Shown: piece by piece, positions 267-59,416 of the stretch | Position numbering within the stretch: position 1 is the first letter of the stretch | How the letters are laid out: every line of letters starts with the position of its first letter | Assembly (NCBI GenBank): GCA_017480225.1 | Contig: JAFVBB010000015.1 | Location: 1-64,000, forward strand | DNA length: 64,000 bases | Direction: 5' to 3' | Source of the DNA: Bacteroidales bacterium | Lineage (GTDB): Bacteria > Bacteroidota > Bacteroidia > Bacteroidales > P3 | Notes under the pieces: generated by a model | Seen by the model: only the letters and a program-made list of their open reading frames with translations | Database searches by the model: none | Told to the model about the DNA's origin: nothing | Program-made: the position numbers and the translations under genes

Positions 267-369
267 CCGACTGTTCCCCGATTGATGTCCGATTGTTCTT
301 CGATTGTTCTCCGATTATAAATCGAAGAACAATCGAAGAACAATCGGAGAACAATCGAAGAACAGACGG
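267..369. repeat. 11-bp-module hairpin element, copy 1
   Basis: Two opposed arrays of four 11-bp modules meet at a 5-bp centre (tataa). Right-arm modules follow ATCGRAGAACA, left-arm modules its complement, and the right outer end is GACGG. The left arm is the degenerate one here: its outermost module is TGTTCCCCGAT and the next is TGATGTCCGAT. Length is 103 bp, the same as five other copies. The long open frames that cross it on both strands come from the repeat and are not genes. Confidence 0.95.
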
Positions 370-536
370 CCCTGACACGGCGGCAGCACAGTGACGGCAC
401 GGTGCCGGCTGCCACTGCGGGCAGCCTAAGCGCGCGGACATCAGCAGATATGGGCGGGTCATATTCCTACTACCTGTGAACCACGGACTTTCAGGGGTTG
501 GAGATAATAATGTTGCGTCGGTTCAAAAAAAATGCT

Positions 537-544
537 TACTTTTG
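537..544 (+). promoter_or_regulatory. Bacteroidota -7 box of an orphan promoter
   Basis: TACTTTTG followed by C matches the Bacteroidota -7 consensus TAnnTTTG. Predicted start of transcription is near 550. No protein gene begins for another 400 bases, so the promoter serves either a long leader of the HTH gene at 952 or a separate RNA. A clear -33 TTTG at 19-20 bp upstream was not found. Confidence 0.5.
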
Positions 545-951
545 CACCCAGTTAGCCGACGCGAGACACTGTCGGCTGGCAGGAAAGCATTTGTGAGGTC
601 CGAAAACTGAAATTTCGCCAAAATTGAACTGAAGGACACTGACAATGTAGTCTTTTGCTTTGCCATCATGTCAAGGCCGAGGAGGCCGCAGGCATATTGG
701 GGGCATAGGATGTACGGTTCAATCAGTTACTATTTCAGTAGGGCGTTTGGCGATGCCTCAGTTTCGTAGCGACTGCACAACACGTGTTCTATGCTTTTTT
801 GTTGCACAACAGAAACGGCCGGCCATGGGGGCACGACGGCCACGAAAAGACCAATCATCATGATGGCGATACAGGAATATACATATATAAAAACGTTGGG
901 GGCCAACCAAATCACGCAGGCGGACAAACAGTAGGCTGAAGACCAAGCTGC
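545..951 (+). other. long non-coding stretch, possible leader or RNA
   Basis: This stretch follows the promoter at 537. It begins with a 7-bp stem (AGCCGAC 554-560 with GTCGGCT 571-577). It holds a 10-bp palindrome AACACGTGTT at 779-788 and a dyad TGTTG-CA-CAACA at 800-811. Short open frames exist but none looks coding. No convincing terminator was seen inside it. It does not match any RNA family recognisable by eye. Confidence 0.3.
800..811. promoter_or_regulatory. TGTTG-CA-CAACA dyad upstream of HTH gene
   Basis: Perfect 5-bp arms with a 2-bp centre. The same arms recur with no spacer at 1197-1206, just before the promoter of the AAA+ operon. A binding site for the HTH protein encoded between them is an inference. 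Confidence 0.3.
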
Positions 952-1230
952 ATGGCCCAGAGGGTTGATTTCGGCGCGATGATCGGCGAGGAGCTGAGGC
1001 GCAGGGGGCTGCCGGTGGCATGGTTTGCCGAGCAGATGGCCTGTGACAGGAGCAACATGTACCGCCTGCTGCGCCGCGCCGACCTGGACAGCGGCTTCAT
1101 TACGCGCGCCTCGTTGCTGCTTGGCAAAGACTTCTACGCCGAGGCGTCAAAACAGCTTGCCGCCGAGCGTCCGACAGTGGCTGACACTGTGGTAAATGTT
1201 GCAACAAACGGTGCGGGGCAATGTGTGTAA
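952..1230 (+). CDS. small XRE-like helix-turn-helix protein
   Basis: A 92-residue protein with a helix-turn-helix in its first half, roughly residues 8-50: the WFAEQMACDRSNMYRLLRR stretch is the recognition core. The later LLLGKDFYAEASK segment is the usual end of these short Bacteroidota XRE-type regulators. The rest is a low-complexity tail. It probably binds DNA and controls the downstream cassette. Its TAA stop (1228-1230) forms the first bases of a TAAATTTG promoter box, so the gene abuts the operon promoter physically. The ATG start is the first in frame after the leader; no ribosome-binding site is visible, as is usual for this phylum. Confidence 0.8.
   Translation: MAQRVDFGAMIGEELRRRGLPVAWFAEQMACDRSNMYRLLRRADLDSGFITRASLLLGKDFYAEASKQLAAERPTVADTVVNVATNGAGQCV
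1197..1206. promoter_or_regulatory. TGTTGCAACA palindrome at AAA+ operon promoter
   Basis: A perfect 10-bp palindrome inside the 3' end of the HTH gene, 22 bp ahead of the TAAATTTG box at 1228. It lies close to where a -33 element would be. It shares TGTTG/CAACA arms with the dyad at 800-811. Likely operator by position; the protein that binds is inferred. Confidence 0.35.
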
Positions 1231-1235
1231 ATTTG
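1228..1235 (+). promoter_or_regulatory. -7 box for the AAA+ cassette
   Basis: TAAATTTG followed by C fits TAnnTTTG and sits 27 bp before the ATG at 1262. Its first three bases are the stop codon of the HTH gene. A TTTG at the proper -33 spacing is missing, which fits a promoter that needs an activator or is weak. Confidence 0.45.
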
Positions 1236-1261
1236 CAAGCCGATAACCAACACCCATACAA

Positions 1262-2170
1262 ATGCCAACATTCAATAAATCAACAAAAAAGGCAGGAGCC
1301 TCACCAACGCCTGGAAGTTCCCCGCGCCGAAACCAGAGAGCTGGCCGGGGCGGATTTGAGGAGCGCGAGCCCCGCTGGGGGCTTGACGGCATTGTGCTGC
1401 AGGAGACGGTAAAAGCCGAGGTGCAGGCCGCCATCGACTTCTGCAAACACCAACAGGAACTTATTGAGCGGTTTGAGCTTGACGAGCGCTTTCTGAAAGG
1501 ACGCGCGTCGGTGGGCATAAACCTTTACGGCCCTCCGGGCACAGGCAAAAGCATCACAGCGGAAGCCATAGCGAAAGCACTGGACAAGAAACTGATAGTG
1601 GCGAACTACGCCGACTTGCTTGACAGCCAGTGGGGCGGAACCGAGAAGCAACTGAGCGCGGTGTTCGAGCAGGCCCAGGCCAGCGGGAGCATAATATTCA
1701 TGGATGAGGCCGACGGCATCATGGGACGCCGGACCTCGCAGGGCGCGAACTCTGAGACAAACAATCAGATAAAGTCGCACCTGCTCACGCTGACAGACAG
1801 CAGCAACGTGATCGTGATTTACGCGACCAACCTATTCGAGAACATCGACAGGGCGTTTTTCAGACGTATCCTCTTCCACATCAAGGTGCCGATGCCGACC
1901 AAAGAGGAGCTGGCGGAACTGTGGAGACTGCACATCGGCAGCGAGAACCTGCCCAAAAAACGAGGAGAGTTCTCGTATGAGGAACTGGCAGCGATGTCGG
2001 AAGGCCAGCTGGCAGGCGGCGACATAAAGAACATTGCGCTGAAACTGTGCGTGAAGATAGGCTGCGGCCACGTCGATGCGATAAGCACGCAACTGGTGAG
2101 GCAGGAAATAGACAAGTACAAGCAAAGCCTCGCCGACAGCCGGGGTGAGAAAGGATTACAAACAACCTAA
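1262..2170 (+). CDS. AAA+ ATPase of the FtsH/Cdc48-like clade
   Basis: A 302-residue single-domain AAA+ ATPase. Visible motifs: Walker A GPPGTGKS (90-97), Walker B IIFMDEAD (144-151), sensor-1 ATN (188-190), two arginines at 201-202 in the arginine-finger position, and GGDI (252-255) at sensor 2. All catalytic parts look intact, so it should form an ATP-driven oligomer. The first 35 residues are basic and disordered. No protease, membrane or nuclease domain is fused, so its target must come from a partner. It is first in a tight run of five genes (to 4211) and those partners are the obvious candidates. Codon use and base composition are less GC-rich than the metabolic genes that follow, which suggests transfer. 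The exact role is unknown. Confidence 0.85.
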   Translation: MPTFNKSTKKAGASPTPGSSPRRNQRAGRGGFEEREPRWGLDGIVLQETVKAEVQAAIDFCKHQQELIERFELDERFLKGRASVGINLYGPPGTGKSITAEAIAKALDKKLIVANYADLLDSQWGGTEKQLSAVFEQAQASGSIIFMDEADGIMGRRTSQGANSETNNQIKSHLLTLTDSSNVIVIYATNLFENIDRAFFRRILFHIKVPMPTKEELAELWRLHIGSENLPKKRGEFSYEELAAMSEGQLAGGDIKNIALKLCVKIGCGHVDAISTQLVRQEIDKYKQSLADSRGEKGLQTT

Positions 2171-2183
2171 AACACACAAATTT

Positions 2184-2528
2184 ATGTTAACACTATCTGT
2201 TATTCTCGGCATCATTGCCGCCGGAGCAATCTCCGCACTGCTGATTATCTTCTGGAAACAGATTGCCCAAGCAGTTCTGCAATTCGTCAAGAAGGGCTGC
2301 GAGGGGCTGCTGGAGTACGAATGGGATCCGGACACTGGCAGACTTATCTGCCTGGTCTACAACTCTGTGAACGGATTGCTCAGAAAAGTCCACGACATGA
2401 TAATGATCGAAACGAAGGAGGACCTGGAGGCACAGATGAGAGAGGGGCTGTTCTCTGAAGAAGAACTGGAAGACCTGGTTGCGCACCGCAAGGTGCAACG
2501 CACCGTCTACAACGACGTCGACGCATAA
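2184..2528 (+). CDS. small membrane protein, paralogue A of cassette
   Basis: A 114-residue protein with one N-terminal transmembrane helix (about residues 3-24) and a charged cytosolic part. An upstream in-frame ATG at 2145 would overlap the AAA+ gene by 26 bases; the ATG at 2184 was chosen because it starts 13 bases after that gene's stop and because the protein then lines up with the next gene. The two share FWK just after the helix, a C-x-x-LLE motif and LIC-x-V-x-N about 20 residues later. No known family recognised. It may anchor the ATPase or the zinc protein to the membrane, which is inference from context only. Confidence 0.65.
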   Translation: MLTLSVILGIIAAGAISALLIIFWKQIAQAVLQFVKKGCEGLLEYEWDPDTGRLICLVYNSVNGLLRKVHDMIMIETKEDLEAQMREGLFSEEELEDLVAHRKVQRTVYNDVDA

Positions 2529-2555
2529 ACCACACCTCGAAAACGATCTGGACAC

Positions 2556-2924
2556 ATGATGACGATTGCATACCTGCTGTGGGCGCTGGTGTTCCTCTCA
2601 ATCGCTGTTGCCATGTTCTGGAAGAAGATAACAAGCCACGCAGAAGAAGTGCTGCTGCAAAAATGCAACGCCCTGCTTGAGCTGAAAAGGGTGAAACTGC
2701 CCAACGGAGCGTGGCAACTGATATGCATTGTGCGCAACGCACTTCAGATGAAAGCTCTGAACAGCGCGAAGAACCTGCGCTACTCGCTGAAGGAAACCGG
2801 CAGAGAGGAGGTAGAGATAAGCGAGAGTGACGTTGCCGAGATGGTGGAACAGGAACTGTTGAGCCAAAGTGAGGCAAACTCGCTGATGCAAGGCAAGATT
2901 GTGTACAGACTAATAACACGCTGA
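2556..2924 (+). CDS. small membrane protein, paralogue B of cassette
   Basis: A 122-residue protein with one N-terminal transmembrane helix (about 4-22) and a hydrophilic tail rich in glutamate near residues 85-110. It is a diverged tandem copy of the preceding gene: the same spacing of FWK, the C-x-x-LLE stretch and LIC-x-V-x-N is kept. The gap to the preceding stop is 27 bases and the next gene starts one base after its stop, so it sits within one transcription unit. No family could be named. Tandem duplication suggests the pair forms a heteromer or recognises two partners, but that is inference. Confidence 0.65.
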   Translation: MMTIAYLLWALVFLSIAVAMFWKKITSHAEEVLLQKCNALLELKRVKLPNGAWQLICIVRNALQMKALNSAKNLRYSLKETGREEVEISESDVAEMVEQELLSQSEANSLMQGKIVYRLITR

Positions 2925-2925
2925 G

Positions 2926-3525
2926 ATGTGCATAAACAAAATACTGAACAAAATGCCAAGTTTCATAAAAAAACCAATAGAAACCGTCAAGTCTAAACTT
3001 GGGGAGATACGGCTGATGGCCTCGTTTGCCAACGATGCAGACCTGATAATGAAGGAAATCGCAAACCACGGCGCGGATGAGGCCAGCAGCATAAAGATGA
3101 GGTTCGAGCAACAGTCGGAAACGATTGTGAAGTACATTGCCTCCGCCGATTTGATTGTGGGCGGAAGAACCGTCCACGTGGACGACTTCATGGACAGAGC
3201 CTACGTGATGGAGGACTTGCCGCAATACCTGGCCGAGAGAATCAAGTCGGGCGACGACACGATAGACTTCAATGCCGACGACCTGCGCCAGCTGAAAGAT
3301 GAAACCCAATACCCCATGAGCAAAAAGGCCGAGTGGGAGAATATTGTGAACAGCTACATCGGCAAACGTCTGCAACTAACCGACCGAGTGTTCTACACGA
3401 TGGTGAAAGTGTACAACCCCGACGGAATGGCAATAATCGAGAAAAGGATTGGCAAGATAGCCGGTATCCCACAAAAGATTGCCGACCAGGTGTATCCTTT
3501 CAAAGAATACACACTGCAGCTGTAA
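2926..3525 (+). CDS. unknown soluble protein of the AAA+ cassette
   Basis: A 199-residue protein with no signal peptide or transmembrane helix. The start at 2926 lies one base past the stop of the preceding gene, a spacing that supports translational coupling. The protein is mostly helical in appearance, with mixed charge and a hydrophobic C-terminal third. No catalytic motif or known family was recognised. It is followed after five bases by the zinc protein, so it belongs to the same operon. An adaptor or substrate for the AAA+ ATPase is a possibility but not shown. Confidence 0.6.
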   Translation: MCINKILNKMPSFIKKPIETVKSKLGEIRLMASFANDADLIMKEIANHGADEASSIKMRFEQQSETIVKYIASADLIVGGRTVHVDDFMDRAYVMEDLPQYLAERIKSGDDTIDFNADDLRQLKDETQYPMSKKAEWENIVNSYIGKRLQLTDRVFYTMVKVYNPDGMAIIEKRIGKIAGIPQKIADQVYPFKEYTLQL

Positions 3526-3530
3526 CCGAC

Positions 3531-4211: not shown

Positions 4212-4236
4212 CACCACATCACACCAGCAAAAAACA

Positions 4237-4266
4237 CCGAGGGGCGTCCATACGGACACCCCTCGG
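4237..4266. terminator. bidirectional terminator
   Basis: CCGAGGGG and CCCCTCGG arms with GTCC/GGAC inside form a strong stem between convergent genes. On the minus strand a TGTTTTTTG tract follows, serving sucD; on the plus strand ATTGTTTTG follows, serving the cassette. Confidence 0.85.
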
Positions 4267-4295
4267 ATTGTTTTGTAGCCTTTAAGCGGAGTGGA

Positions 4296-5654: not shown

Positions 5655-5690
5655 TTCTGTTGTGTATGATTTGTTAGTTTGTGTCTGTCA

Positions 5691-6806: not shown

Positions 6807-6826
6807 TGATTGTTATTTTGGTTTGT

Positions 6827-8131: not shown

Positions 8132-8135
8132 GTGA

Positions 8136-9942: not shown

Positions 9943-10056
9943 CCGTCTGTTCTTCGATTGTTCTCCGATTGTTCTCCGATTGTTCTTCGATATTAAATCG
10001 AAGAACAATCGGAGAACAATCGAAGAACAATCGGAGAACAATCGAAGAACAGACGG
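9943..10056. repeat. 11-bp-module hairpin element, copy 2 (one extra module)
   Basis: Four left modules and five right modules around attaa, bounded by CCGTC and GACGG. It is 114 bp, exactly one 11-bp module longer than the other copies. Module variants (Y or R at the variable position) read T,C,C,T on the left and A,G,A,G,A on the right. It lies between the abfD promoter and a long terminator stem. Confidence 0.95.
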
Positions 10057-15488: not shown

Positions 15489-17246
15489 CTACCACTCTTT
15501 GATGGCTATGTCGCCGTCGTACCAGCCCTTGATGTGCTTGAACAGAGCCTCGGCGGCGGTGCGGCTCTTGGCGCTGCCCATACTGACGTAGAACATGTTG
15601 TTCTTCTCGATGATGTAAGCGTCGCTGCCGAGGTCGTGCAGGCGGGCTGTCATGCGGGCTGCCTTGGCGCGGTCAATGTAGAACCCCGCGATGATGTCGA
15701 AGCCCTGCTTGCTCGATTGCTCCACGTTCACCCTCGTGGCAGGCTCGGCCGGAGGGGTCGCCTGCGGCTTCGGCTGGCGCACCTGCTGCACAGGCGCGGT
15801 GGCCACCTGCCTGTCGGGCTCAATGCCAAGCTCGGACACGAGGGCGTTGAGGATGCTGTCGAGCAGGGCCATGTCGAGCAGCTCGCCCTGCACCTTGAAG
15901 CGCTGGCGCTGGGCGAAACGGTCGCGCATGTGGGGCTCACAATGGTCGTAGACGTAGTCGGCGCGCGGTATCAGGCGCTGCACGGCGAAGCGGTCGGCCA
16001 AAAGCTCGCCAAGTCGGCGGCCAGCATAGTCGCGCACGCGCTCCATCATGGGCGTCTGGGCACCGGTGTAATGGCGGTAGGCCAGGAAGCTGTAGATGTA
16101 GTCGCGCATATAGTTGCACACACGGTCGCGGTTCACAGCCACGGCGCGGCCGTCGTACTCAAGCAGGTCGGTGTTGTAGGTGAGGTCGTTGGTCACCGGG
16201 GCATCGACGTGCGAGCCGCTTGCCGACGACGAATGACCCCTCTGCGGCAGCAGGCCGAAGTGCCAGCACGCCGCGCCTCCCAGCAGGAGCAACAGCAGCA
16301 AAAGCAGCAGCCACAGCCACCAGCGGTTCTTTTTCTTCTTCCCGTCATCCTTCTTTTTGCCAGCGGCGGCCTTCGCCTTCTTGTCTTTCTTGCCCTTTTT
16401 CGCAGCGGCCGGTGCCACAGGCTTGTCAGCCTCACTGCCCGGCTCCACCTTGTCAAGCGCGGCAAGCCGCTCTTCTTCTGCCTTGCGGGCCTCGGCGGCC
16501 ATGCGCTCCTCCTCTGCCTTGCGGGCCTCGGCGGCAAGCCGCTCCTCCTCTGCCTTGCGGGCCTCGGCGGCCAAGCGCTCCTCTTCTGCCTTGCGGGCTT
16601 CGGCGGCCATGCGCTCCTCTTCCGCCTTGCGGGCCTCGGCAGCAAGCCGCTCCTCCTCTGCCTTGCGGGCTTCGGCGGCCATGCGCTCCTCCTCCGCCTT
16701 GCGGGCTTCGGCGGCGAGCCTCTCCTCCTCCGCCTTGCGGGCCTCGGCAGCGAGCCGCTCCTCTTCCGCCTTGCGGGCAGCTGCAGCGGCAGCCCCGGCA
16801 GCAAACCGCGCGAAGGGGTCGGGCTTCGACGAGTGGTCGTAGGTCTTGACGCCCTCTATTGGTTTCTCGCCATCGGTGCTGAGCACCGCGCCATCGTTGG
16901 CATCGAAGGAATACTCACCGTCCGCGCTGCGGCGCAGCGTGCCCAGCTCGCCGAAAGAATGGCCGCCGGTGCGCTGCAACTTGTCGGTGAGGGCGTCGAT
17001 ATAGTTCTTCCACATCTGGCGCGCCACCCCCTCGCCCACGCACTCGCGCTCGGCCAGCGCCTCGACAATCGAGTTGTCGCCACTGGTGGCTGTGTCGAAC
17101 TTGAGCGTGCGGCTGGCGGGGAAGTAGACGCCCCGCTCCGCGTCGTGGTGCGGCGGGCGCGTCTCTGAGCCGAAGGTGCCTATGCCCTCCAGCTCCACCT
17201 GCCTGCCCTGGCGCAGCAACTCAACAATAAGGTCGGTTATGCTCAT
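15489..17246 (-). CDS. HU-like/SPOR-domain membrane protein with repeat region
   Basis: A 585-residue protein. Residues 1-120 resemble the HU-CCDC81 type domain found at the N-terminus of Bacteroidota SPOR proteins (VELEGIGTFGS). Residues 158-264 are nine near-identical 12-residue repeats (RKAEEERLAAEA, L or M at the eighth place) that will form a long charged helix. A lysine-rich segment and one transmembrane helix (WWLWLLLLLLLLLLGG, about 315-335) follow. The C-terminal 70 residues are a SPOR domain, which binds denuded peptidoglycan at division sites. It should span the inner membrane with the N-terminus in the cytosol. Its ATG overlaps the kdsB stop by four bases. Confidence 0.85.
   Translation of the reverse strand: MSITDLIVELLRQGRQVELEGIGTFGSETRPPHHDAERGVYFPASRTLKFDTATSGDNSIVEALAERECVGEGVARQMWKNYIDALTDKLQRTGGHSFGELGTLRRSADGEYSFDANDGAVLSTDGEKPIEGVKTYDHSSKPDPFARFAAGAAAAAARKAEEERLAAEARKAEEERLAAEARKAEEERMAAEARKAEEERLAAEARKAEEERMAAEARKAEEERLAAEARKAEEERLAAEARKAEEERMAAEARKAEEERLAALDKVEPGSEADKPVAPAAAKKGKKDKKAKAAAGKKKDDGKKKKNRWWLWLLLLLLLLLLGGAACWHFGLLPQRGHSSSASGSHVDAPVTNDLTYNTDLLEYDGRAVAVNRDRVCNYMRDYIYSFLAYRHYTGAQTPMMERVRDYAGRRLGELLADRFAVQRLIPRADYVYDHCEPHMRDRFAQRQRFKVQGELLDMALLDSILNALVSELGIEPDRQVATAPVQQVRQPKPQATPPAEPATRVNVEQSSKQGFDIIAGFYIDRAKAARMTARLHDLGSDAYIIEKNNMFYVSMGSAKSRTAAEALFKHIKGWYDGDIAIKEW
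16452..16775 (-). repeat. nine tandem 36-bp coding repeats
   Basis: Nine in-frame 36-bp units encode RKAEEERLAAEA. The units differ mainly at synonymous sites and at one Leu/Met codon. The last unit runs into LDK. Such arrays tend to vary in copy number between strains. Confidence 0.9.
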
Positions 17247-18909: not shown

Positions 18910-19012
18910 CCGTCTGTTCTTCGATTGTTCTCCGATTGTTCTTCGATTGTTCTTCGATTTAGCATCGGAGAACAATCGAAGAACAATCGGAGAACAGTCG
19001 GAGAACAGAGCC
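18910..19012. repeat. 11-bp-module hairpin element, copy 3 (inverted)
   Basis: Four left and four right modules around ttagc, 103 bp. Here the right arm is the degenerate one (last module GTCGGAGAACA, end GAGCC), and the conserved outer flank GGCAATGTCAACA is on the left, so this copy is inverted relative to copies 1, 4 and 5. It sits between two divergent genes. An open frame running through it continues into nadC. Confidence 0.93.
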
Positions 19013-25234: not shown

Positions 25235-25347
25235 CAAGACCGTCTGTTTTCCGATTGATGTCCGATTGTTCTTCGATTGTTCTTCGATACAAAATCGAAG
25301 AACAATCGGAGAACAATCGAAGAACAATCGAAGAACAGACGGTCTTG
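25235..25347. repeat. 11-bp-module hairpin element, copy 4
   Basis: The 103-bp core (25240-25342) has four modules per arm around acaaa; perfect matches CAAGACCGTCTG and CAGACGGTCTTG extend it on both sides. The second left module is TGATGTCCGAT, as in copies 1 and 5. It is followed by the flank TGATATTGCCTTGACACC. It begins 26 bases past the receptor gene stop. Confidence 0.95.
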
Positions 25348-25369
25348 ATATTGCCTTGACACCATTTCA

Positions 25370-25393
25370 TGCTGATTGTCAACATTATACAAC
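25370..25393 (+). repeat. distal module beside repeat copy 4
   Basis: Begins GCTGATTGTCAACATTATAC, a relative of the module beside copies 3 and 5. It is 22 bases beyond the end of the extended hairpin. The rest of the gap to sppA (25394-25532) shows no clear promoter. Confidence 0.5.
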
Positions 25394-25532
25394 AAATATA
25401 ATTTACAACAACCTATATATCAAGGCATTAAAACAGCATCCGACCCCAATTCCTGAGCCAACGCGGGCAGGCACAATAAACCGGCACGAGCGGCGTTGTT
25501 AGGGCTGGAAATCAACAAAACAAACCAACTAT

Positions 25533-32935: not shown

Positions 32936-33014
32936 CAACATACTGTTAACCAGCATATTGGCACATATTTTACACCCCGCAGCAAGACTGCAACATAACT
33001 TACTAATAATCAGC
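32936..33014 (-). repeat. two solo copies of the distal module
   Basis: Plus-strand 32936-32956 (CAACATACTGTTAACCAGCA) and 32991-33014 (CAACATAACTTACTAATAAT followed by CAGC) are related to the module flanking repeat copies 3-5. No 11-bp hairpin core is present here. About 90 bases on, GGTGAAGGCAAGTGATTGAC (33110 region) resembles the core-proximal flank, so a copy may have lost its core. Confidence 0.45.
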
Positions 33015-33232
33015 ATTAAAGCCAGACCAACTCCTACTCAACTCCTACCCATCTACTATCCAACACTTAGTCATCGCCTACATTGGTAGGTGTTGTATAG
33101 GCGTTGAGCAGGTGAAGGCAAGTGATTGACAGGGCGTTGACGCTGTCCTGACACCGCCTGCAGCCATGGACAGTGGTGGCGACGGCCTGCGGGGTGGCGG
33201 AAAAATTATTCGGCGGGTTGCGGTTTTTTTCG
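33015..33232. other. non-coding gap before ruvB
   Basis: Nothing coding is visible. It contains pyrimidine-rich near-repeats (CCAACTCCTACT, TCAACTCCTACC), a small stem CCTAC/GTAGG at about 33089, and the possible repeat-flank relic near 33110-33130. Confidence 0.4.
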
Positions 33233-38163: not shown

Positions 38164-39069
38164 TTATCTTATTGGAGAATACGCTATATTGACGGCATAT
38201 AGCACCGCCAGCACAAAGGAGGTGAGCACCAGCAGCGGCAGCGCGGGGTCGAGCCGACGGCCATGTCCACGCCACACGATGACGAGATGCCACGCGAAGA
38301 ACGGCAGGGTGACGAGCATAATGTAAGGGCGAATCGGGGCATAGAAGAAGCAGCCCACCCCCAGCACCACCAGTGCGGTCTGGTACCACTTGGCGGCCCG
38401 CTCACCGATGCGCAGGGGCGTGGTGGTGCGCGAGCCACGGTCAGTCTCCATGTCGCGGATGTTGTTCACGTTCAGCACCCCCACGCTCAGCAGCCCCATG
38501 CCCACCGCCGGCAGCAGCAGGTGTGGGGCAAGGGCTACGGTGTGTGTTACCACGAAGTAGCTGCCCAGCACACTCACCAATCCGAAGAAGATGAACACGA
38601 AGAGGTCGCCCAGCCCACGGTAGCCGTAGGGGTTCTTGCCGAGCGTGTAGTGCGTGGCTGCCCAAATGGCCGCAGCGCCGAGCAGAAGCAGCGCCACAGC
38701 GCGCCAATCGAGCAACGTGCCGAAGGAATGCCATGTCATCGCAAGGCCGAACACACAGCAGCACACGGCCGTGATGCGGATGGCGCGCACCATCTGCCGC
38801 TCCGTGAGGCCTCCTTCGAGCATACTGTAGACAGGCCCCTGCCGCACGGAGGTGTTGTCCACGCCGTTGCGGTAGTCGCCAAGCTCATTGCTCAGGTTGC
38901 TCAATATCTGAAGCGAGCAGGCTGTCAGAGCGATCTCGACCAAAAGCAACGTGCTGGCCGGGCTCGCCGACCCCTGAAACCATAGCCCCGTCAGCCCGCC
39001 ACACAGCACCCCTCCGAGCGAGAGGAGATTGGCGCGGAAGCGCATCGATTTTATGAGGCTACTTAACAT
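38164..39069 (-). CDS. menA: 1,4-dihydroxy-2-naphthoate polyprenyltransferase
   Basis: A 301-residue UbiA-family membrane prenyltransferase with about eight or nine helices. It attaches the polyprenyl tail to dihydroxynaphthoate in menaquinone synthesis. The two Asp-rich motifs are [12 protein letters not shown] and [21 protein letters not shown]. It overlaps aspS by 11 bases and leads directly to menG, so steps of one pathway are adjacent. Confidence 0.94.
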
Positions 39070-40813
39070 CGACCTTTATTTGCAGTTCGTCGAGCTGCTC
39101 CTGGCTTATCGGCGAGGGGCTGCCGCTCATCACGTCGCGGCCAGCATTGTTCTTCGGGAAAGCGATGAAGTCGCGAATGCTGTCGGCACCGGCGAAGATG
39201 CTGCACAGGCGGTCGAAGCCGAAGGCCAGGCCGGCGTGGGGCGGCGCGCCGTAGGTGAAGGCGTCCATCAGGAAGCCGAACTGCGCGGCAGCCTGCTCGT
39301 CGGTGAAGCCCAGCGTGTGGAACATCTTGTTCTGCAGCGTGCGGTCGTGTATGCGGATGCTGCCTCCGCCCACCTCGCAGCCATTGATCACAATGTCGTA
39401 GGCATTGGCGCGGATGTCGCCCCAGCGGGCGGGGTCGTCGAGCAGAGCCTCGTCCTCGGGCTTGGGGGCGGTGAAGGGGTGGTGCATGGCGTAGAAGCGC
39501 TGCGTCTCGTCGTCCCACTCAAGCAGGGGGAAGTCCACCACCCACAGCGGCGCGAACTGCTGCGGGTCGCGCAGACCAAGACGGCTGCCCATCTCAAGGC
39601 GCAGGGCGCAGAGCTGCACGCGCGTCTTCATGGCGGGGCCGCAGAGGATGAGCATAAGGTCGCCCGGCTTGGCTCCCATGGCGTCAGCCACAGCCTTCAG
39701 CGCGTCGGCGTCGAAGAACTTGTCGACCGAGCTCTTGAACGTGCCGTCGGCGTTGTATTTGACGTAGACCAGGCCACCGGCACCCACCTGCGGGCGCTTC
39801 ACAAAGTCGGTCAGCGCATCGAGCTGCTTGCGCGTGTAGTCGGCACAGCCCTCGGCCACGATGCCGACGACCAGCTCGCTGCTGTCGAACAGGCCAAAGC
39901 CACGGCCCTTAGCCACGTCGGTGATTTCCTTGAACTCCATGCCGAAGCGCATGTCGGGCTTGTCGCTGCCGAAGCGGCGCATGGCGTCGTGCCAGGTGAT
40001 GCGCTGGAACTGGCCGAAGTCTATGCCCTTCATCTCCTTGAACAGATGGCGCGCCAGCCCCTCGAACATGCAGAGCACGTCCTCCTGCTCCACGAAGCTC
40101 ATCTCGCAGTCAATCTGCGTGAACTCCGGCTGGCGGTCGGCGCGAAGGTCCTCGTCGCGGAAGCAGCGCACTATCTGGAAGTAGCGGTCCATACCGGCCA
40201 CCATCAGCAGCTGCTTGTACTGCTGCGGCGACTGCGGCAGGGCGTAGAACTCGCCGGGGTTCATGCGGCTGGGCACCACAAAGTCGCGAGCGCCCTCGGG
40301 CGTGCTCTTGATGAGCATCGGGGTCTCAATCTCCAGGAAGTCGCGGTCGGAGAGGTAGTTGCGCACCAGCATGGCCATGCGGTGGCGCATCTCAAGGTTG
40401 CGGCGCACCGGCGAGCGGCGTATGTCGAGGTAGCGGTAGCGCATACGCAGGTCGTCGCCGCCGTCGCTCTGCTCCTCGATGGTGAAAGGAGGAGTCTTGG
40501 CCTCGTTGAGCACACGCAGCTCCGCGACCTCAATCTCGATTTCGCCGGTGGGGATCTTGCTGTTCTTCGACGAGCGCTCTATCACCACACCGGTGGCCTG
40601 CACCACAAACTCCCTGCCCAGGCGGCGAGCCTGCTCGCATAGCGGGGCGTTGGTCTCCATGTTGAAAGCCAGCTGCGTGATGCCGTAGCGGTCACGCAGA
40701 TCCACAAACGTCATTCCGCCCAGGTCGCGCGAGCGCTGCACCCAGCCGGCAAGGGTCACTGTTTGACCCGCGTTGGCGAGCCTCAACTCGCCGCAAGTAT
40801 TAGTGCGATACAT
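39059..40813 (-). CDS. aspS: aspartyl-tRNA synthetase
   Basis: A 584-residue class II synthetase of the bacterial type with the GAD insertion domain. The N-terminal OB fold ([26 protein letters not shown]), motif 2 region with [18 protein letters not shown], and motif 3 GLAFGFDRL are present. It charges tRNA-Asp. First gene of a unit with menA and menG. The promoter box at 40848 leaves a leader of about 30 bases. Confidence 0.97.
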
Positions 40814-40930: not shown

Positions 40931-41033
40931 CCGCCTGTTCTCCGATTGATGTCCGATTGTTCTTCGATTGTTCTTCGATTTATAATCGGAGAACAATCGA
41001 AGAACAATCGGAGAACAATCGAAGAACAGACGG
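40931..41033. repeat. 11-bp-module hairpin element, copy 5
   Basis: Four modules per arm around ttata, 103 bp. The second left module is TGATGTCCGAT, shared with copies 1 and 4. The flank TGTTGACATTGCCTTTACACC follows on the right in its conserved form. It lies between the tRNA-Cys terminator and the aspS promoter. Confidence 0.95.
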
Positions 41034-45342: not shown

Positions 45343-45415
<73 letters not shown>

Positions 45416-45431
45416 GATTGCGGTTCTCTTG

Positions 45432-45505
45432 TCGGGGTGAGAAGACTCGAACTTCCGGCCTCCACGTCCCGAACGTGGCGCGCTAGCCAACTGCGCTACA
45501 CCCCG
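45432..45505 (-). tRNA. tRNA-Pro (CGG)
   Basis: 74 nt; acceptor CGGGGTG with CACCCCG, anticodon loop TTCGGGA gives CGG, discriminator A. CCA is not encoded. Confidence 0.95.
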
Positions 45506-45510
45506 CGGTT

Positions 45511-45586
45511 TGGTGTCCTGGCAGGGATTCGAACCCTGGACCCATTGATTAAGAGTCAATTGCTCTACCAGCTGAGCTACCAAGAC
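45511..45586 (-). tRNA. tRNA-Lys (CTT)
   Basis: 76 nt including an encoded CCA; acceptor GTCTTGG with CCAGGAC, discriminator A, anticodon loop CTCTTAA gives CTT. It is the only tRNA in the window with CCA in the DNA. Confidence 0.95.
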
Positions 45587-45703
45587 ATTTCTCTCATTTC
45601 GCTTGTGTCTTTTGGACAATCTCATCGGCCTTCCTGATGAAGGCGTTTGAACATGGACTTTGAGTTTGTCGCAACAACATGTCAAACTACTCTCTTATTC
45701 TTG

Positions 45704-45776
<73 letters not shown>

Positions 45777-45788
45777 GCTTGCCTTTAG

Positions 45789-45871
45789 TACTCCGGGTGG
45801 GACTTGAACCCACACGCCCTTGCGGGCAAGGGATTTTAAGTCCCTCGTGTCTACCATTCCACCACCAGAGC
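45789..45871 (-). tRNA. tRNA-Leu (TAA)
   Basis: 83 nt with the long variable arm of class II tRNAs (TTGCCCGCAAGGGC stem); anticodon loop CTTAAAA gives TAA. Acceptor starts with a G1-U72 wobble. Confidence 0.94.
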
Positions 45872-45898
45872 TCTTCACTCCGATTTTGGAGCCTTTTG

Positions 45899-45971
<73 letters not shown>

Positions 45972-51352: not shown

Positions 51353-51372
51353 CATATTTTTTCAGACATAGC

Positions 51373-51430: not shown

Positions 51431-51439
51431 TTTTTTTCG

Positions 51440-51447: not shown

Positions 51448-51470
51448 CACTGCATCAACAATGAACCATT

Positions 51471-52154: not shown

Positions 52155-52350
52155 ACGCCACTTTCGGGCATTGTGCCATTCTGCCACAAGCACAGCACCC
52201 ACCGCGGCACCGGCCATCCAGGCACCTTATTGCCCAGTGTCAATGACGGCACAGGAACACACATTATATCTGATTGCCAACACATTGCAACCAACCATCA
52301 CCATAACACGCTGAAATACAAGCGAACAAAGCATACAGGCAATACCAAGG

Positions 52351-52453
52351 CCGTCTGTTCTTCGATTGTTCTCCGATTGTTCTTCGATTGTTCTCCGATA
52401 TTAAATCGAAGAACAATCGAAGAACAATCGGAGAACAATCGAAGAACAGACGG
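52351..52453. repeat. 11-bp-module hairpin element, copy 6
   Basis: Four regular modules per arm around attaa, bounded by CCGTC and GACGG, 103 bp. Variants read T,C,T,C on the left and A,A,G,A on the right. It lies between convergent genes; the 196 bases before it (52155-52350) hold nothing else recognisable. Confidence 0.96.
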
Positions 52454-52500
52454 TGTTGATACGGTGTCAGGGCTGTTTTTCCGGGACGATGCGGGGCAGG

Positions 52501-55340
<2,840 letters not shown>

Positions 55341-55344
<4 letters not shown>

Positions 55345-56315
55345 AATTTCTCAATGAGTGTGGTGTCGTGCTTGCCGCGCACCATGGTGTTGTACTCGGT
55401 GCCTTTCTTGACCGGCACGCTCACCATATAGGTCTTGCCCAGCTTGTTGCGCAGGGTGCTCGATGTGAGCCACGGGTTGAGCATACGCAGCACCTTGTAG
55501 GTCGTGCCGTGCTCAGTCGCGAAACTCACCAAGTCCACATTCTGTCCGCTCAGCTCAACCTCCTCGGTGAGCGGCGTGGCATAGGTGTCGCAGTGGCGCA
55601 CGAAGAACCCATAGTCCTGCGGGTGCTGCATGATCAGCTTGATGGCAAGTATGCGGTATACATAGCGCTGGGTCTCGCTGTTGAGCAACAGCTCATAGTA
55701 GCTGTCCTGCCGTTGTGACGACAGCTGGCGGTTGAGCCCGCCCTCGCCGCAGTTGTATGCCGCCGCAGCCTCTGGCCATCCCCCCAGTCTCGACTTCAAG
55801 TTTTTCAGGAAGCGGCAGGCCGCGCGCGTCGATGCCTCAAGGTGGTTGCGCATGTCGATGTCGTCGCCCACCTCCAGCCCGTACTGCAACGCCGTGGGTT
55901 TCATGAACTGCCACCACCCCTGCGCGCCCGCCGGCGAGCTGACGCACTGCAAGCCGCTTTCGGCCACACAAAGGTACTTCATGTCGTCGGGCACCCCTTC
56001 CTGGCGCAATATGGGCTCAATAACCGGGAACACTCGCGCCGCGCGCTTGATGTAGAACAGGGTGTTGCTCTGGTAGTACATGTTCGACACCAGCTCACGG
56101 TCAAGGCTCTCGCGCACATAATACAGGTTCAGCGGCACACGCTCGCCGCAGAAACTCAAGCTGTCGGGCAGCGGCGGGGCATAGACGCGGCAGTCGGAGC
56201 GTATGGCCTGAGTGTGCAGGGCGTCACTGTCGTCCTTGCGTGTGGCGAAAATGAAAGCTTCGCCGACCAACGCCAGCGAAGCCAGCACTATGGCTATTAT
56301 GCTTATCTTTTTCAA
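55341..56315 (-). CDS. MltD-like lytic transglycosylase
   Basis: A 324-residue envelope enzyme. An N-terminal hydrophobic segment (about 4-24) acts as signal or anchor. The SLT domain spans about 110-230: the catalytic glutamate is in [10 protein letters not shown], followed by [18 protein letters not shown] and AAYNCGEGG. It cleaves peptidoglycan to anhydromuropeptides. The C-terminal 70 residues may be a degenerate LysM-like region. ATGA overlaps join it to coaBC and uvrA. Confidence 0.9.
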
Positions 56316-57511
56316 CTGGCAACTGTTTTGACTATTAATCGCGCCACGTCGTGCTTGCTCATCAGGCCGCTTTCCTCACGCGCGCCGTCGGCGGCAAGTA
56401 TGGTCACCTTGTTGGTGTCAACACCGAAACCCGCCCCTGCGTCGCGCAGCGAGTTGAGCACGATGTAGTCGAGGTGCTTGCGACGCAGCTTCTCCTCGGC
56501 GTTGGCCACCTCGTTGTCGGTCTCCAAGGCGAAGCCTACCAAGCGCTGGGAACCCTGCTTCATGCGCCCCAGTTCGGCCAAGATGTCGGGGTTCTGCACC
56601 AGTTTTAGTTCAAGACCTTCCCCACCCTGCTTCTTCAGCTTGTGGTCGGCCACATGCTCAGGCCTGTAGTCGGCCACCGCAGCCGAGAGTATGGCACCGT
56701 CGCAGCGCGGGAAAAGGCTTGTTGCAGCGTCGTACATTTGGACTGCGCTCTCCACGTCGGTGCGCGTCACGCCGTGACGATTCATGGCCAGCGACGTGGG
56801 GCCGCATACGAGCTCCACCGCCGCTCCTGCGTTGGCCAGCGCCTCGGCCAGGGCGAAACCCATCTTGCCGCTGCTGTAATTACCGATGAAGCGCACGCTG
56901 TCTATGCGCTCATACGTGGGGCCCGCGGTCACCAGCCAACGCTGGCCGTCGAGCCTCGGCAGGCCGTCGCCGTCGCGCAATGCGGACAGCATTCTGTCGG
57001 CCTCGGCCACAATGGCCGACGGTTCGGCCATGCGACCGCGCCCCTCGGTGCCGCACGCCAGCTGCCCCTCGTCGGGTCCCACCATGCCCACGCCCCAGCC
57101 ACGGAGCATGGCCACATTGCGCTGCACGGCGGGGTGAGCCCACATCTGGCTGTTCATGGCCGGTGCCAGCAGCACACGGCGCGGGTCGACCGCCAGCAGT
57201 AGGGTGCTCAAGGCGTCGTCGGCAATGCCCGACGCCAGCTTGCCCAGGCAGTTGGCCGTGGCCGGAGCCACAACCACCAGGTCTGCCCAGTCCTTGATGC
57301 TGATGTGTTCGGTGGAGTGGCGGTTGCCTTCGAACAGGTCGCAATAGAGCGGGGCCGCGCTCACCGTCTCGAGCGAGCAGCGCGCCACGAACCGCAGCGC
57401 GTGCTCTGTGGCCGCGCAGCGCACCTCGTGACCCATCTTCACCAGCTGCCTCACCACCTCGGGCGCCTTGTAGGCCGCTATGCCGCCAGTTATGCCGACA
57501 ACGACGTGCAT
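56312..57511 (-). CDS. coaBC: bifunctional CoaBC (PPC synthetase/decarboxylase)
   Basis: A 399-residue two-domain enzyme of coenzyme A synthesis. CoaC half: IGITGGIAAYKAPEV-type N-terminus, active histidine in STEHISIKD, and PAMNSQMW. CoaB half: GPTYERIDSVRFIGNYSSGKMG and KLKKQG-type loop. Starts one base after the rpoZ stop, a gene order common in the phylum. Confidence 0.96.
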   Translation of the reverse strand: MHVVVGITGGIAAYKAPEVVRQLVKMGHEVRCAATEHALRFVARCSLETVSAAPLYCDLFEGNRHSTEHISIKDWADLVVVAPATANCLGKLASGIADDALSTLLLAVDPRRVLLAPAMNSQMWAHPAVQRNVAMLRGWGVGMVGPDEGQLACGTEGRGRMAEPSAIVAEADRMLSALRDGDGLPRLDGQRWLVTAGPTYERIDSVRFIGNYSSGKMGFALAEALANAGAAVELVCGPTSLAMNRHGVTRTDVESAVQMYDAATSLFPRCDGAILSAAVADYRPEHVADHKLKKQGGEGLELKLVQNPDILAELGRMKQGSQRLVGFALETDNEVANAEEKLRRKHLDYIVLNSLRDAGAGFGVDTNKVTILAADGAREESGLMSKHDVARLIVKTVAS

Positions 57512-57916
57512 TTACATCTCCTTGATGGCCTGTTCTTCCAGTTCTTCCAGACGGCGCTCCTGCTGGTTCTCACGAGCGGGGTTGCGGTAGTAGAGCTCGC
57601 CGTCAAGGTACTCCTCGGTGGCCTCGAGCACAGGCTTGGGCTGCTTCTCGTAGCGGCGCACCATGTCTACCTGCTCACGGTTCTCAAGGATCTCGTCGAG
57701 CGAGTCGCTCACCGAGCGGAACTCGTCGATGCGGCCGTGCAGCTCCCTCTTCTCCTCGGCGGCAATCTGGTTGGCGCGCTTGGTGAGCATGGCCACCGTC
57801 TCATAGATATTGCCCGTCATGTTGCTGAAGAGGGCGGTGTTGCGGGTGATGGTGGTGTTGCTGATCTTTTTCTTCTTCTCCGATGCCTCTGGGGCTTCCT
57901 TTGCGGTTGCTTTCAT
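57512..57916 (-). CDS. rpoZ: RNA polymerase omega subunit, Bacteroidota type
   Basis: A 134-residue protein matching the divergent Bacteroidota omega (Rpb6-like): TTITRNTALFSNMTGNIYETVAMLTKRANQIAAEEK, then ENREQVDMVRRYEKQPKPVLEATEEYLDGELYYRNP. The 17-residue Lys/Glu-rich N-terminus and the acidic tail are longer than usual. Position between bamD and coaBC supports the call. Confidence 0.9.
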   Translation of the reverse strand: MKATAKEAPEASEKKKKISNTTITRNTALFSNMTGNIYETVAMLTKRANQIAAEEKRELHGRIDEFRSVSDSLDEILENREQVDMVRRYEKQPKPVLEATEEYLDGELYYRNPARENQQERRLEELEEQAIKEM

Positions 57917-57979
57917 CGTCGTTAAATCGTCGTTATTTGGATTTAGAGTAATTGTTGTCTGTTGTCTACTGGCGGCGGC

Positions 57980-58777
57980 TTACAGCGCGGCCAGCGCGGC
58001 GCGGGTCTTGGTGTAAATCTCCTGCGCCGAGGCCAGCCTGGCCGGGTCCTTGATGGAGGCGCTGTATTTGTCGAAGTCGCCCACCACCTGCTGCAGCCGC
58101 TCGCGCTTCTTGTCCTCACGGCTGCCCTTGGCGTAGCGGTAGCCTGCCAGCAACTGGTAGTACATGGCCTCCTCGCGGAACGGCGAGTCGGGGTAGAGGT
58201 CGATGAAGCGGCGCATCTGCTCGTAGGCGGCGTGGTACTCCTCAATCACGTAGTAGCCACGGGCTATCTCGAAGTCCTTCTTCATCAGCTTCTCGTACAT
58301 CTCGTCGAGGCAGCGGTTCACGTCGGGCATGTGCACGCTGCGGGGCCACCTTTCGGCAAACGACTCGAACTCCTCCACCGCCTCGCGCGTGAGCGACTGG
58401 TCGAGCGTGTAGGCTGGCGCGGCCATGTATTTGCAATAGGCCGACATGTAGAGCCCCTCCTCGGCGTTCTCGCTGTAGGGGAACTGGCTGGCGAAGCGCT
58501 TGAACTGGTAGGCCGCCGCGTAGTACTCCTGCTGCTTGTAGAGGGTCTGCGCATAGCACCACGCCACCTGCTCGGCATTGTCGCGGCCGCGATAGTGCAG
58601 CGTCAGGTTCTCGAACAGGCGCGCGGCCTTAGTATAGCCGCCGCTGTTGTAGTAGCGCATGGCCGCCTCGTACTTCGCATCGTAATCATTGCTGTTGAGC
58701 AGCTTCTCGTAGCCGTTACAAGAGGTTGCAAGCAAGCCAATTGCGCTGAAGAGTGCAATTATTTTAACCCATTTCAT
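57980..58777 (-). CDS. bamD: outer-membrane assembly lipoprotein BamD
   Basis: A 265-residue lipoprotein with lipobox LLATSC (Cys20) and five TPR repeats (YNSGGYTKAARLFENLTLHY is the first). Part of the BAM complex that folds outer-membrane proteins. The open frame extends upstream to 59026, but the true ATG is 58777. A TATCTTTG box ends seven bases before it, so its mRNA may be almost leaderless. First gene of the unit reaching uvrA. Confidence 0.93.
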   Translation of the reverse strand: MKWVKIIALFSAIGLLATSCNGYEKLLNSNDYDAKYEAAMRYYNSGGYTKAARLFENLTLHYRGRDNAEQVAWCYAQTLYKQQEYYAAAYQFKRFASQFPYSENAEEGLYMSAYCKYMAAPAYTLDQSLTREAVEEFESFAERWPRSVHMPDVNRCLDEMYEKLMKKDFEIARGYYVIEEYHAAYEQMRRFIDLYPDSPFREEAMYYQLLAGYRYAKGSREDKKRERLQQVVGDFDKYSASIKDPARLASAQEIYTKTRAALAAL

Positions 58778-58783
58778 AGCCTG

Positions 58784-58791
58784 CAAAGATA
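58784..58791 (-). promoter_or_regulatory. -7 box immediately before bamD
   Basis: TATCTTTG then CAGGCTATG on the minus strand. The initiation codon begins only seven bases past the box. No good -33 TTTG at 19-20 bases. Confidence 0.6.
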
Positions 58792-58859
58792 CAACTTTTT
58801 TTTCAATGCAGGCCATTTTTCTTGCCGCAGGCGCCACTTTTCGGGCGCGGCCGCGGCCA

Positions 58860-59249
58860 CTATGCCTCCAGCAGGCGGCGGCGCACGTCGTCGGGCACCA
58901 CAGCCGCGGCGCCGGCGCTGCGGCTGTAGCCTGCCATGACGGTGCGGCAAGTGGCGTAGGCGAGGCCGTCGGCGCTGCCCACCACGCGCTGCAGCAGCGT
59001 GAGGCTTTTCGTGCCGAAGCGCTCAACCGAGGTCTCCACGCTCACCGCGTCGTGGAAATGTATCTGACGCTGGAAGTCGACCTCGTAGTGCACTATCATC
59101 ACGGTGAAGTCGCCCTCCTCGGGCGGCAGTCCGGCGCTGGTGAAGAAGCCCTCCTTGCCGAGGTCGAAGTATTCCATGATTACGGCGTTGTTCACATGGC
59201 CCATCTGGTCAATGTCGTTGAAGCGAATTTGTACAGGTAAAGTGTGCAT
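58860..59249 (-). CDS. acyl-CoA thioesterase, 4HBT hotdog family
   Basis: A 129-residue single hotdog-fold protein with the 4-hydroxybenzoyl-CoA thioesterase signature RFNDIDQMGHVNNAVIMEYFD, where the aspartate is catalytic. It hydrolyses an acyl-CoA; the acyl group is unknown. It lies after repeat copy 7 and is not in an obvious operon. Confidence 0.85.
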   Translation of the reverse strand: MHTLPVQIRFNDIDQMGHVNNAVIMEYFDLGKEGFFTSAGLPPEEGDFTVMIVHYEVDFQRQIHFHDAVSVETSVERFGTKSLTLLQRVVGSADGLAYATCRTVMAGYSRSAGAAAVVPDDVRRRLLEA

Positions 59250-59313
59250 ATAGAGTGTTGGTTTTCAGTGCGTGCAATAGCGGCCACAGGGGCAGGCCCG
59301 GTGGCTGCCAGGG

Positions 59314-59416
59314 GCGTCTGTTCTCCGACTGTTCTTCGATTGTTCTCCGATTGTTCTTCGATTATAAATCGAAGAACAATCGGAGAACAATCGAAGAACA
59401 ATCGAAGAACAGACGG
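59314..59416. repeat. 11-bp-module hairpin element, copy 7
   Basis: Four modules per arm around tataa, 103 bp; left boundary is GCGTC, right GACGG. The outer left module ends GAC instead of GAT. It lies 65 bases before the thioesterase ATG and 90 bases beyond the histidine kinase stop. Confidence 0.95.

What the first reader, a model, noticed from the sequence alone, without database searches (positions are those of the whole stretch)
267..59416. Seven dispersed hairpin elements built from opposed arrays of 11-bp modules
Seen: near-identical ~103-bp intergenic elements at 267, 9943, 18910, 25240, 40931, 52351 and 59314. Each has four ATCGRAGAACA modules on one arm, four complements on the other, a 5-bp centre and CCGTC/GACGG ends. 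The 11-bp period is about one helical turn, so all modules face the same side of DNA, as in iterons or a protein array site. They are between genes only, about one per 9 kb. Known: REP/MITE families have single stems; an array of phased modules in a stem is not a layout I recognise. Inference: a nonautonomous mobile element, a nucleoid-protein site or a transcript-end element.
Basis: partly seen in the sequence, partly recalled or inferred. Interest (0 to 1): 0.85.

Follow-up and report, generated by a model that had tools for sequence, protein, structure and literature searches.

The report
Evenly spaced hairpin arrays along chromosome
This bacterium carries a long hairpin built of phased 11-letter blocks about every ten thousand letters of the chromosome studied, spaced far more evenly than chance, which looks like an unknown DNA-organising system rather than scattered junk.

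Summary
The seven elements are real, with small corrections. In 1.213 Mb read of the 2.05-Mb source genome there are 85 of them (class I), all with arms facing each other. Together the 117 sites form a quasi-regular ruler: mean gap 10.2 kb, CV 0.37, minimum 4.3 kb, maximum 20.3 kb, against CV 0.85, 0.6 kb and 46 kb for random intergenic placement; none of 10,000 shuffles came near. The two classes avoid each other and share an accessory motif (25 of 25 occurrences beside elements, though in only 24 of 117 elements). Same-genus species have 11-bp arrays with different modules; spacing is even in two of three tested. Neither of two tested transposase families was found in this genome. Class I sites lie mostly upstream of promoters, which disfavours an RNA or transcript-end role. 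Best reading: binding arrays for a head-to-tail DNA-binding protein that organises the chromosome in roughly 10-kb units. The spacing is shown; protein and function are inferred. Main rival: a mobile element near saturation with target immunity.

The parts
267..369 (.). Class I element e1: opposed arrays of 11-bp modules, 4+4, centre TATAA
   Evidence: no clear tail on either side
9943..10056 (.). Class I element e2: 4+5 modules, centre ATTAA
   Evidence: no clear tail
18910..19012 (-). Class I element e3: 4+4 modules, tail on the low-coordinate side
   Evidence: tail score 48
25240..25342 (+). Class I element e4: 4+4 modules (left arm has variant TGATGTCCGAT), tail on the high-coordinate side
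   Evidence: tail score 62.5
33003..33135 (+).
40931..41033 (+). Class I element e5: 4+4 modules, upstream of the class II tRNA synthetase gene (aspS type) at 39059-40813 (-), tail on the high-coordinate side
52351..52453 (-). Class I element e6: 4+4 modules, tail on the low-coordinate side, between a luxR-type gene and a uvrA-type gene
59314..59416 (.). Class I element e7: 4+4 modules, no clear tail
25343..25435 (+). Example of the one-sided tail of class I (degenerate region carrying a CTGRTTNTCAR-type motif)

Best explanation
The elements are chromosomal binding sites. Each 11-bp module (one helical turn) binds one protomer of a DNA-binding protein that assembles head-to-tail, and two such arrays run into each other at an AT-rich centre, with a directional region on one side. 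Sites of two sequence classes are laid out as a single quasi-regular ruler of about 10 kb. I infer that they organise the chromosome, for example as loop anchors or barriers to supercoil diffusion upstream of promoters. The specificity of the binding protein drifts between species, so the module letters change while the 11-bp phase and roughly the spacing persist. Shown: anatomy, spacing, exclusion between classes, a motif shared by both classes, class I position upstream of promoters, different modules in relatives. Inferred: the protein, its MerR-like (CarH/BldC-like) mode of binding, and the architectural function.
For: Spacing: 117 sites, 110 gaps, mean 10,199 bp, CV 0.368, minimum 4,272, maximum 20,323. 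The context-preserving null over eligible intergenic gaps gives mean CV 0.85 (lowest of 10,000: 0.60), mean minimum gap 622 (highest 1,576) and mean maximum 45,979 (lowest 26,904); simple mutual exclusion (shifted exponential) is also rejected (P 0.0006 for the maximum gap). 0 of 32 class II sites lie within 4.5 kb of class I; random placement gives mean 12.4, minimum 3 in 10,000 trials. A module-blind lag-11 scan recovers 116 of 117 sites with 1 extra; it gives 117 noncoding hits at lag 11 and 118 at lag 22, against 0-5 at ten other lags tested from 7 to 20. CTGWWAAYCAGC: 25 occurrences, 16 near class I, 9 near class II, 0 elsewhere. 69 of 100 gene-start sides of class I have TAnnTTTG between element and gene, antisense control 9 of 100. 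The arm next to the tail differs by 0.6% among 28 copies, the tail by 25-63%. Relatives: G023 (21 gaps) mean 10.6 kb, CV 0.47, and G012 (8 gaps) 6.4 kb, CV 0.24, both below all 3,000 shuffles. Precedent: CarH tetramers bind tandem 11-bp direct repeats (PMC9304148, passages); BldC oligomerises head-to-tail on direct repeats (PMC6428758, passages).
Against: No protein is identified; the two MerR_1 matches in the genome are not distinctive, since all 12 genomes searched have at least one. Positional conservation between species is not significant (5 shared gene sides, Fisher P 0.16). The accessory motif was read off the elements themselves, is present at that stringency in only 15 of 85 class I and 9 of 32 class II elements, and is not found beside arrays of relatives. 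Spacing in G008 is not significant (15 gaps, CV 0.63, P 0.07). Many arrays of relatives show no strong hairpin: hairpin at 14 of 24, 6 of 18 and 3 of 11 sites, and in G008 the control is 3 of 36. One end stretch of 37.6 kb in contig C11 has no element. Only 59% of the genome was read.
Confidence: 0.48

Rival explanations
1. A nonautonomous mobile element (MITE-like) moved by an unknown or extinct transposase. Local target immunity keeps copies apart, and near-saturation of intergenic space limits the largest gaps, so the even spacing is a by-product.
For: Similar dispersed copies, intergenic only. Minimum gap 4.3 kb, as immunity would give. Absent from the first 37.6 kb of contig C11, whose first 30 kb are low in G+C and prophage-like. 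Class I module present at scale in 3 of 99 genus genomes that are not one clade on an aspS tree. Y1 matches do exist in two same-genus genomes, one over and one under the cut-off (G061, G062).
Against: No rve integrase/transposase domain in G000, G008, G012, G061, G062; one in G023. No Y1 transposase in G000. Exclusion also holds between two classes with different modules. Conservation fades gradually outward instead of stopping at an edge. Gaps are more even than simple exclusion predicts, although a saturated process with soft immunity was not modelled. Target duplications and empty sites could not be tested because no close strain was at hand.
Confidence: 0.27
2. Operators of a large regulon: promoter-upstream sites of a MerR-like or OmpR-like regulator that binds tandem 11-bp repeats, with spacing incidental.
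For: Class I sites lie upstream of TAnnTTTG promoters (69 of 100 gene-start sides), and 51 of 95 eligible divergent gaps hold an element. CarH binds 11-bp direct repeats at a promoter (PMC9304148, passages).
Against: 11 sites are between convergent genes. An ordinary regulon has no reason to be spaced at CV 0.37. The genes beside elements in the window that I scanned have unrelated functions.
Confidence: 0.12
3. RNA-level element: a transcript-end or RNase III-type hairpin.
For: Very long stem; 11 bp is also the A-form turn (recalled).
Against: Mostly upstream of promoters at gene starts. No sense G-U bias. No consensus structure in the tail. No Rfam match in the window apart from tRNAs at gathering threshold.
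Confidence: 0.05
4. Neutral minisatellites: slippage-prone 11-bp repeats made palindromic by template switching.
For: 11-bp and 7-bp tandem repeats are common in intergenic DNA of relatives; quasi-palindrome repair can perfect arms (recalled).
Against: Slippage does not explain even spacing, exclusion between classes, or a motif confined to the elements.
Confidence: 0.05

Closest known systems
REP / BIME elements with RAYT transposases
   Same: Intergenic palindromic repeats in high copy number; a BIME was reported to impede supercoil diffusion (PMC6907758, passages)
   Different: REPs are 20-40 bp palindromes tagged GTAG or CGTC at one end (PMC3733652, abstract start in listing and passages); here about 103 bp built of phased 11-bp modules, no Y1 transposase in the genome, even spacing
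BrickBuilt MITE of Porphyromonas gingivalis
   Same: Bacteroidota element that contains internal tandem repeats and is predicted to form long stem-loops (PMC4596501, passages)
   Different: 23-nt direct repeats, terminal inverted repeats, target duplications at some copies, 19 copies; no 11-bp opposed arrays or ruler spacing in the passages seen
TAACTGA heptamer arrays (Beggiatoaceae, Cyanobacteria, some Bacteroidetes)
   Same: Abundant short-period intergenic arrays with patchy distribution (PMC4679880, passages)
   Different: 7-bp direct arrays, in the main genome mostly just upstream of start codons; only one indirect repeat reported there
CarH / BldC operators (MerR-family head-to-tail binders)
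   Same: Tandem 11-bp direct repeats bound along one face (CarH, PMC9304148, passages); variable-number direct repeats bound head-to-tail (BldC, PMC6428758, passages)
   Different: Promoter operators; no opposed arrays and no chromosome-wide spacing in the passages seen
Chromosome-organising sites such as parS, matS, KOPS (recalled)
   Same: Dispersed DNA sites read by an architectural protein
   Different: Short single sites of conserved sequence; parS and matS are regional; none is a 10-kb ruler (recalled, not tested)

Membership tests
REP/BIME with RAYT | 20-40 bp palindrome with an unpaired GTAG or CGTC tag at one end | tested here: not met
   about 103 bp, CCGTC and GACGG at opposite ends that can pair with each other
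REP/BIME with RAYT | Y1 (RAYT-type) transposase in the genome | tested here: not met
   0 PF01797 matches in G000, 97.6% complete; 1 match over the cut-off in same-genus G061 and 1 under it in G062
MITE | Terminal inverted repeats shared with a transposon and target duplications | tested here: inconclusive
   The whole core is an inverted repeat; no sharp outer edge; no rve gene in G000; no empty orthologous site available
MITE | Copies diverge evenly along their length, as neutral copies would (my expectation) | tested here: not met
   Arm next to tail 0.6%, far arm 6.0%, tail 24.8%, 44.5%, 62.7% mean pairwise difference in 28 copies
Intrinsic terminator / transcript-end hairpin | Located at 3' ends, oriented with transcription | tested here: not met
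   51 divergent, 52 tandem, 11 convergent of 114; tail direction of class I mixed relative to neighbouring genes
Known structured RNA | Match to an Rfam family | tested here: not met
   Only 7 tRNAs in the window at gathering threshold
Chromosome architectural sites | Non-random placement on the resident chromosome | tested here: met
   Even spacing; absent from a low-GC stretch with weak phage-gene matches
Chromosome architectural sites | Bound by an architectural protein in vivo | not testable with these tools
   Needs ChIP or pull-down
MerR-family head-to-tail operators (CarH/BldC) | Tandem direct repeats of about 11 bp | tested here: met
   Period 11 in each arm; this is only a likeness of the site
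MerR-family head-to-tail operators (CarH/BldC) | Bound by a MerR-family protein | not testable with these tools
   MerR_1 proteins present but also in every other genome searched

The most novel reading that the evidence does not exclude
A chromosome-wide ruler: a genus of Bacteroidales marks its resident chromosome every 6-11 kb (by species) with phased 11-bp arrays that nucleate a polymerising DNA-binding protein. Site letters and protein specificity evolve together from species to species while spacing is maintained, giving the bacterium genetically encoded, evenly sized chromosomal domains.
Probability: 0.35. Interest if true: 0.95.

Novelty: categorically new. Interest (0 to 1): 0.85.

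Why it matters
In E. coli, supercoil domains vary widely in size with seemingly random placement of barriers, and the identity of the barriers is not established (PMC6907758, passages). A sequence-encoded, evenly spaced, species-specific set of sites would make domain organisation directly testable. It would also be an unusual case of site and reader turning over together genome-wide. If it is instead a mobile element held apart by immunity, it would be an unusually clean natural record of that process.

Tried and rejected
Insertion-site analysis by relatives: 41 genomes of the genus, own included, were searched for the genes beside e5 (aspS) and e4 (sppA); the relatives are too distant for empty-site junctions. 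The aspS upstream region, printed for 16 genomes, showed 11-bp arrays with other letters in G008, G023, G012, G001, G024 and G009 by eye. Positional orthology with G023, G008 and G012: 5 shared gene sides, Fisher P 0.16, not significant; of 108 gaps with conserved gene adjacency 0 held an element in G000 and 1 in a relative.

RNA structure of the tail: essentially none. Sense G-U bias: none. Viral contigs: 0 exact matches to the triple module. Arm-swap complementarity was dropped as evidence for hairpin selection because those elements had been chosen for being palindromic; the lag-11-only choice is used instead. The cross-class test counted 50 hits before merging duplicates (null mean 19.2, minimum 10 of 5,000); it is replaced on the 32 merged sites. 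The accessory motif was sought in relatives and not found beside their arrays.

Papers: the held library was searched for 11-bp repeats, Bacteroidales or Bacteroidetes tandem/palindromic repeats, regularly spaced palindromic repeats, and Cryptobacteroides repeats. None of the titles and abstract starts listed there describes this element; the lists were capped (for example 25 of 126, 8 of 4,459). Many subscription papers are not held. The genus name used in one search was a guess and is not established.
Full report
Observation. The seven elements are at the coordinates given. Each is a palindrome made of 11-bp modules, A = ATCGAAGAACA and G = ATCGGAGAACA. The commonest exact order over the genome part read is A G A A, a 5-bp centre, A A G A (17 of 85 elements), with CCGTC/GACGG ends. 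The module with at most one mismatch occurs 58 times in the window, against 1.02 expected. One copy in the window has five modules on one arm. Three copies in the window carry TGATGTCCGAT as second module from the outside on one arm.

Genome. The window is the first 64 kb of contig C8 of a 2.05-Mb genome in 22 contigs, 97.6% complete. Two genomes of the same genus as the window (G104 and G105, recognised as G062 and G061 by identical match places) come from records titled as Bacteroidales bacteria, one of them from sheep rumen, so the order is taken as Bacteroidales. I read 1,212,795 bp of this genome (plus the window). Clusters of two or more modules with at most one mismatch gave 85 class I elements. 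All 85 have the arms facing each other; no one-directional or inside-out array was seen in the part read. Extrapolated to the genome this is about 144 copies.

Direction. Copies were first oriented by their arms and then re-oriented by the score of their flanks alone (6 of 58 flipped); 40 of the 58 elements in the first 829 kb carry a similar tail of about 90 nt on one side. Among 28 copies with a strong tail and full 4+4 arms, the arm next to the tail differs by 0.6% between copies, the far arm by 6.0%, and the tail by 24.8% (positions 1-25), 44.5% (26-56) and 62.7% (57-90). Conservation therefore peaks in the core and fades outward. That fits selection or continuing homogenisation of the core better than neutral ageing of a mobile unit.

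A second class. Tandem repeats in noncoding DNA outside class I are dominated by period 11 (37) and 22 (13), with 30 for all other periods together. All but about three of those 50, by eye, are one family: a lead close to TTAAGNATAGACC, then CAACTCCTACT-type modules, then a degenerate opposed arm. There are 32 sites after merging duplicates, one of them in the window at about 33003-33135, midway in the widest class I gap of the window. A best-hairpin search in a 130-nt stretch found a hairpin at 20 of 32. Of the 38 arrays first listed, 27 lay between divergent genes and none inside a called gene.

The ruler. Class I alone has no gap under 4,272 bp and 3 under 5 kb in 78 gaps; uniform placement expects 24.5 gaps under 5 kb and gives at least 14 in 2,000 trials. 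Class II sites fall in the wide gaps of class I: 0 of 32 lie within 4.5 kb of a class I element, where random placement in intergenic gaps free of class I gives mean 12.4 and minimum 3 in 10,000 trials. The 117 sites together give 110 gaps with mean 10,199, median 9,713, CV 0.368, minimum 4,272, maximum 20,323. Placing the same numbers at random in eligible intergenic gaps of the same contig and gene orientation gives CV 0.85 (lowest 0.60), minimum gap 622 (highest 1,576) and maximum gap 45,979 (lowest 26,904) in 10,000 trials. A pure exclusion model with the same minimum and mean is rejected too (maximum gap P 0.0006; observed CV below all 10,000). Stretches from contig ends to the first or last element are not counted. 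One of these is long: the first 37.6 kb of C11 has no element. Its first 30 kb have G+C 0.44-0.50 in 5-kb steps, against 0.61 in the window, and two of seven proteins scanned there match phage portal and terminase models, both below the curated cut-offs, so it is probably a prophage.

One system. A module-blind scan for identity at lag 11 finds 116 of the 117 sites plus one T-rich extra. The motif CTGWWAAYCAGC occurs 25 times in the 1.213 Mb, 16 times within 200 bp of class I, 9 times within 200 bp of class II and nowhere else; it points toward the array in 21 of 25. It was read off these elements, so the fair point is that both classes share it and that it is absent elsewhere. It covers only 15 of 85 class I and 9 of 32 class II elements at this stringency, and it is not seen beside the arrays of relatives.

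Where they sit. Elements lie in 51 of 95 eligible divergent gaps, 52 of 230 tandem gaps and 11 of 40 convergent gaps. At gene-start sides of class I elements, 69 of 100 have the Bacteroidota promoter motif TAnnTTTG (recalled) between element and gene, against 9 of 100 in the antisense control. They are therefore mostly upstream of promoters there. Stem mismatches in the 44 tandem-context class I elements show no preference for G-U in the sense strand. These points disfavour an RNA role.

Relatives. An exact double module is absent from 36 same-genus and 24 other-family genomes first searched; with one mismatch and a free last letter it is found at scale in 3 of 99 genus genomes (own included), and in 3 more as 1-3 matches. 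On an aspS tree of 29 species those three are not one clade; at least two changes are forced by well supported branches, though one of the three rows is only 44% filled. Other species in the genus carry 11-bp arrays with other letters: GTTCTTCAGTA, CGGCCCCCCTA-type and TTCAACGATAC in G023, GTTCGACCATC in G008, GTATTACGGTA in G012. CAACTCC-type double modules occur in 37 of 99 genomes at up to two mismatches. Blind noncoding lag-11 sites: 24 in 272 kb (G023), 18 in 270 kb (G008), 11 in 80 kb (G012). Their gaps are even in G023 (21 gaps, mean 10.6 kb, CV 0.47) and G012 (8 gaps, 6.4 kb, CV 0.24), both below all 3,000 shuffles, and not significantly so in G008 (15 gaps, 11.0 kb, CV 0.63, P 0.07). 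Hairpins (score at least 14) are present at 91 of 117 sites in G000 and 14 of 24, 6 of 18 and 3 of 11 in G023, G008 and G012, against 7 of 155, 1 of 40, 3 of 36 and 0 of 8 control gaps. In 18 readable stretches (234 kb) from other families of the order the only lag-11 hit was one AT-rich stretch (two further stretches were all N).

Mechanism. A period of one helical turn, opposed arrays, exclusion across sequence classes and module turnover point to a protein that binds one module per turn and assembles head-to-tail. [quoted passage not shown] MerR_1 proteins exist in this genome, but also in all other 11 genomes searched, so none is named here. Even spacing on the resident chromosome suggests an architectural role. 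A BIME was reported to impede supercoil diffusion, and domain barriers in E. coli are of unestablished identity and seemingly random placement (PMC6907758, passages).

Main rival. A mobile element with target immunity close to saturation could also give a minimum gap and a fairly even map; I did not simulate a saturated process with soft immunity. Against it: no rve domain in five of six genomes including G000, no Y1 transposase in G000 (one over and one under the cut-off in two same-genus genomes), exclusion between two classes, and a graded rather than sharp conservation profile. It cannot be excluded without strain-level comparison.

Limits. 59% of the genome was read, mostly the larger contigs. 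The relatives were sampled in 80-272 kb pieces. Assembly breaks at repeats could remove some gaps, but only gaps within contigs were counted. Function has not been tested by any experiment.

Noticed in passing
L169-L176, L209-L228 (G023, G008): Noncoding 7-bp (and 14-bp) tandem arrays are about as common as 11-bp arrays in these two relatives (22 and 21 sites at lag 7) but absent from the part of the window's genome that was read (0).
   Followed up: no
G000 contig C11:1-30000 (L063, L064): Low-GC stretch with weak portal and terminase matches, probably a prophage, free of class I and II elements.
   Followed up: partly
L015, L022, L024: Contigs titled Limisphaerales or Verrucomicrobia carry one-directional arrays of the same ATCGAAGAACA module (up to 11 exact copies), grading into ATCGAGGAACA in L015 and L024.
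   Followed up: partly
L185, L186 (G005): A same-genus species has 10-bp arrays (TAATTGCTGT, ATTCACGGGC).
   Followed up: no
G000 C1:258536-258645 (L061): An unrelated 49-bp-arm palindrome rich in TCTAGA lies just beside the class I element at 258668.
   Followed up: no
window 16423-16823: Eight copies of a 36-bp repeat inside the ORF at 15489-17246 (-), probably protein repeats.
   Followed up: no
window 45343-45971: Cluster of six tRNA genes, two of them identical over 76 nt.
   Followed up: no
upstream of class II elements in L049-L086 and L189-L203: A further conserved block GCAGGGGGTAAT lies about 50 nt before many class II arrays.
   Followed up: no
class I tails: Many tail copies look either A/C-rich or G/T-rich, by eye, perhaps a replication-strand mutation bias; transitions only modestly exceed transversions (4120 to 3361).
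   Followed up: partly
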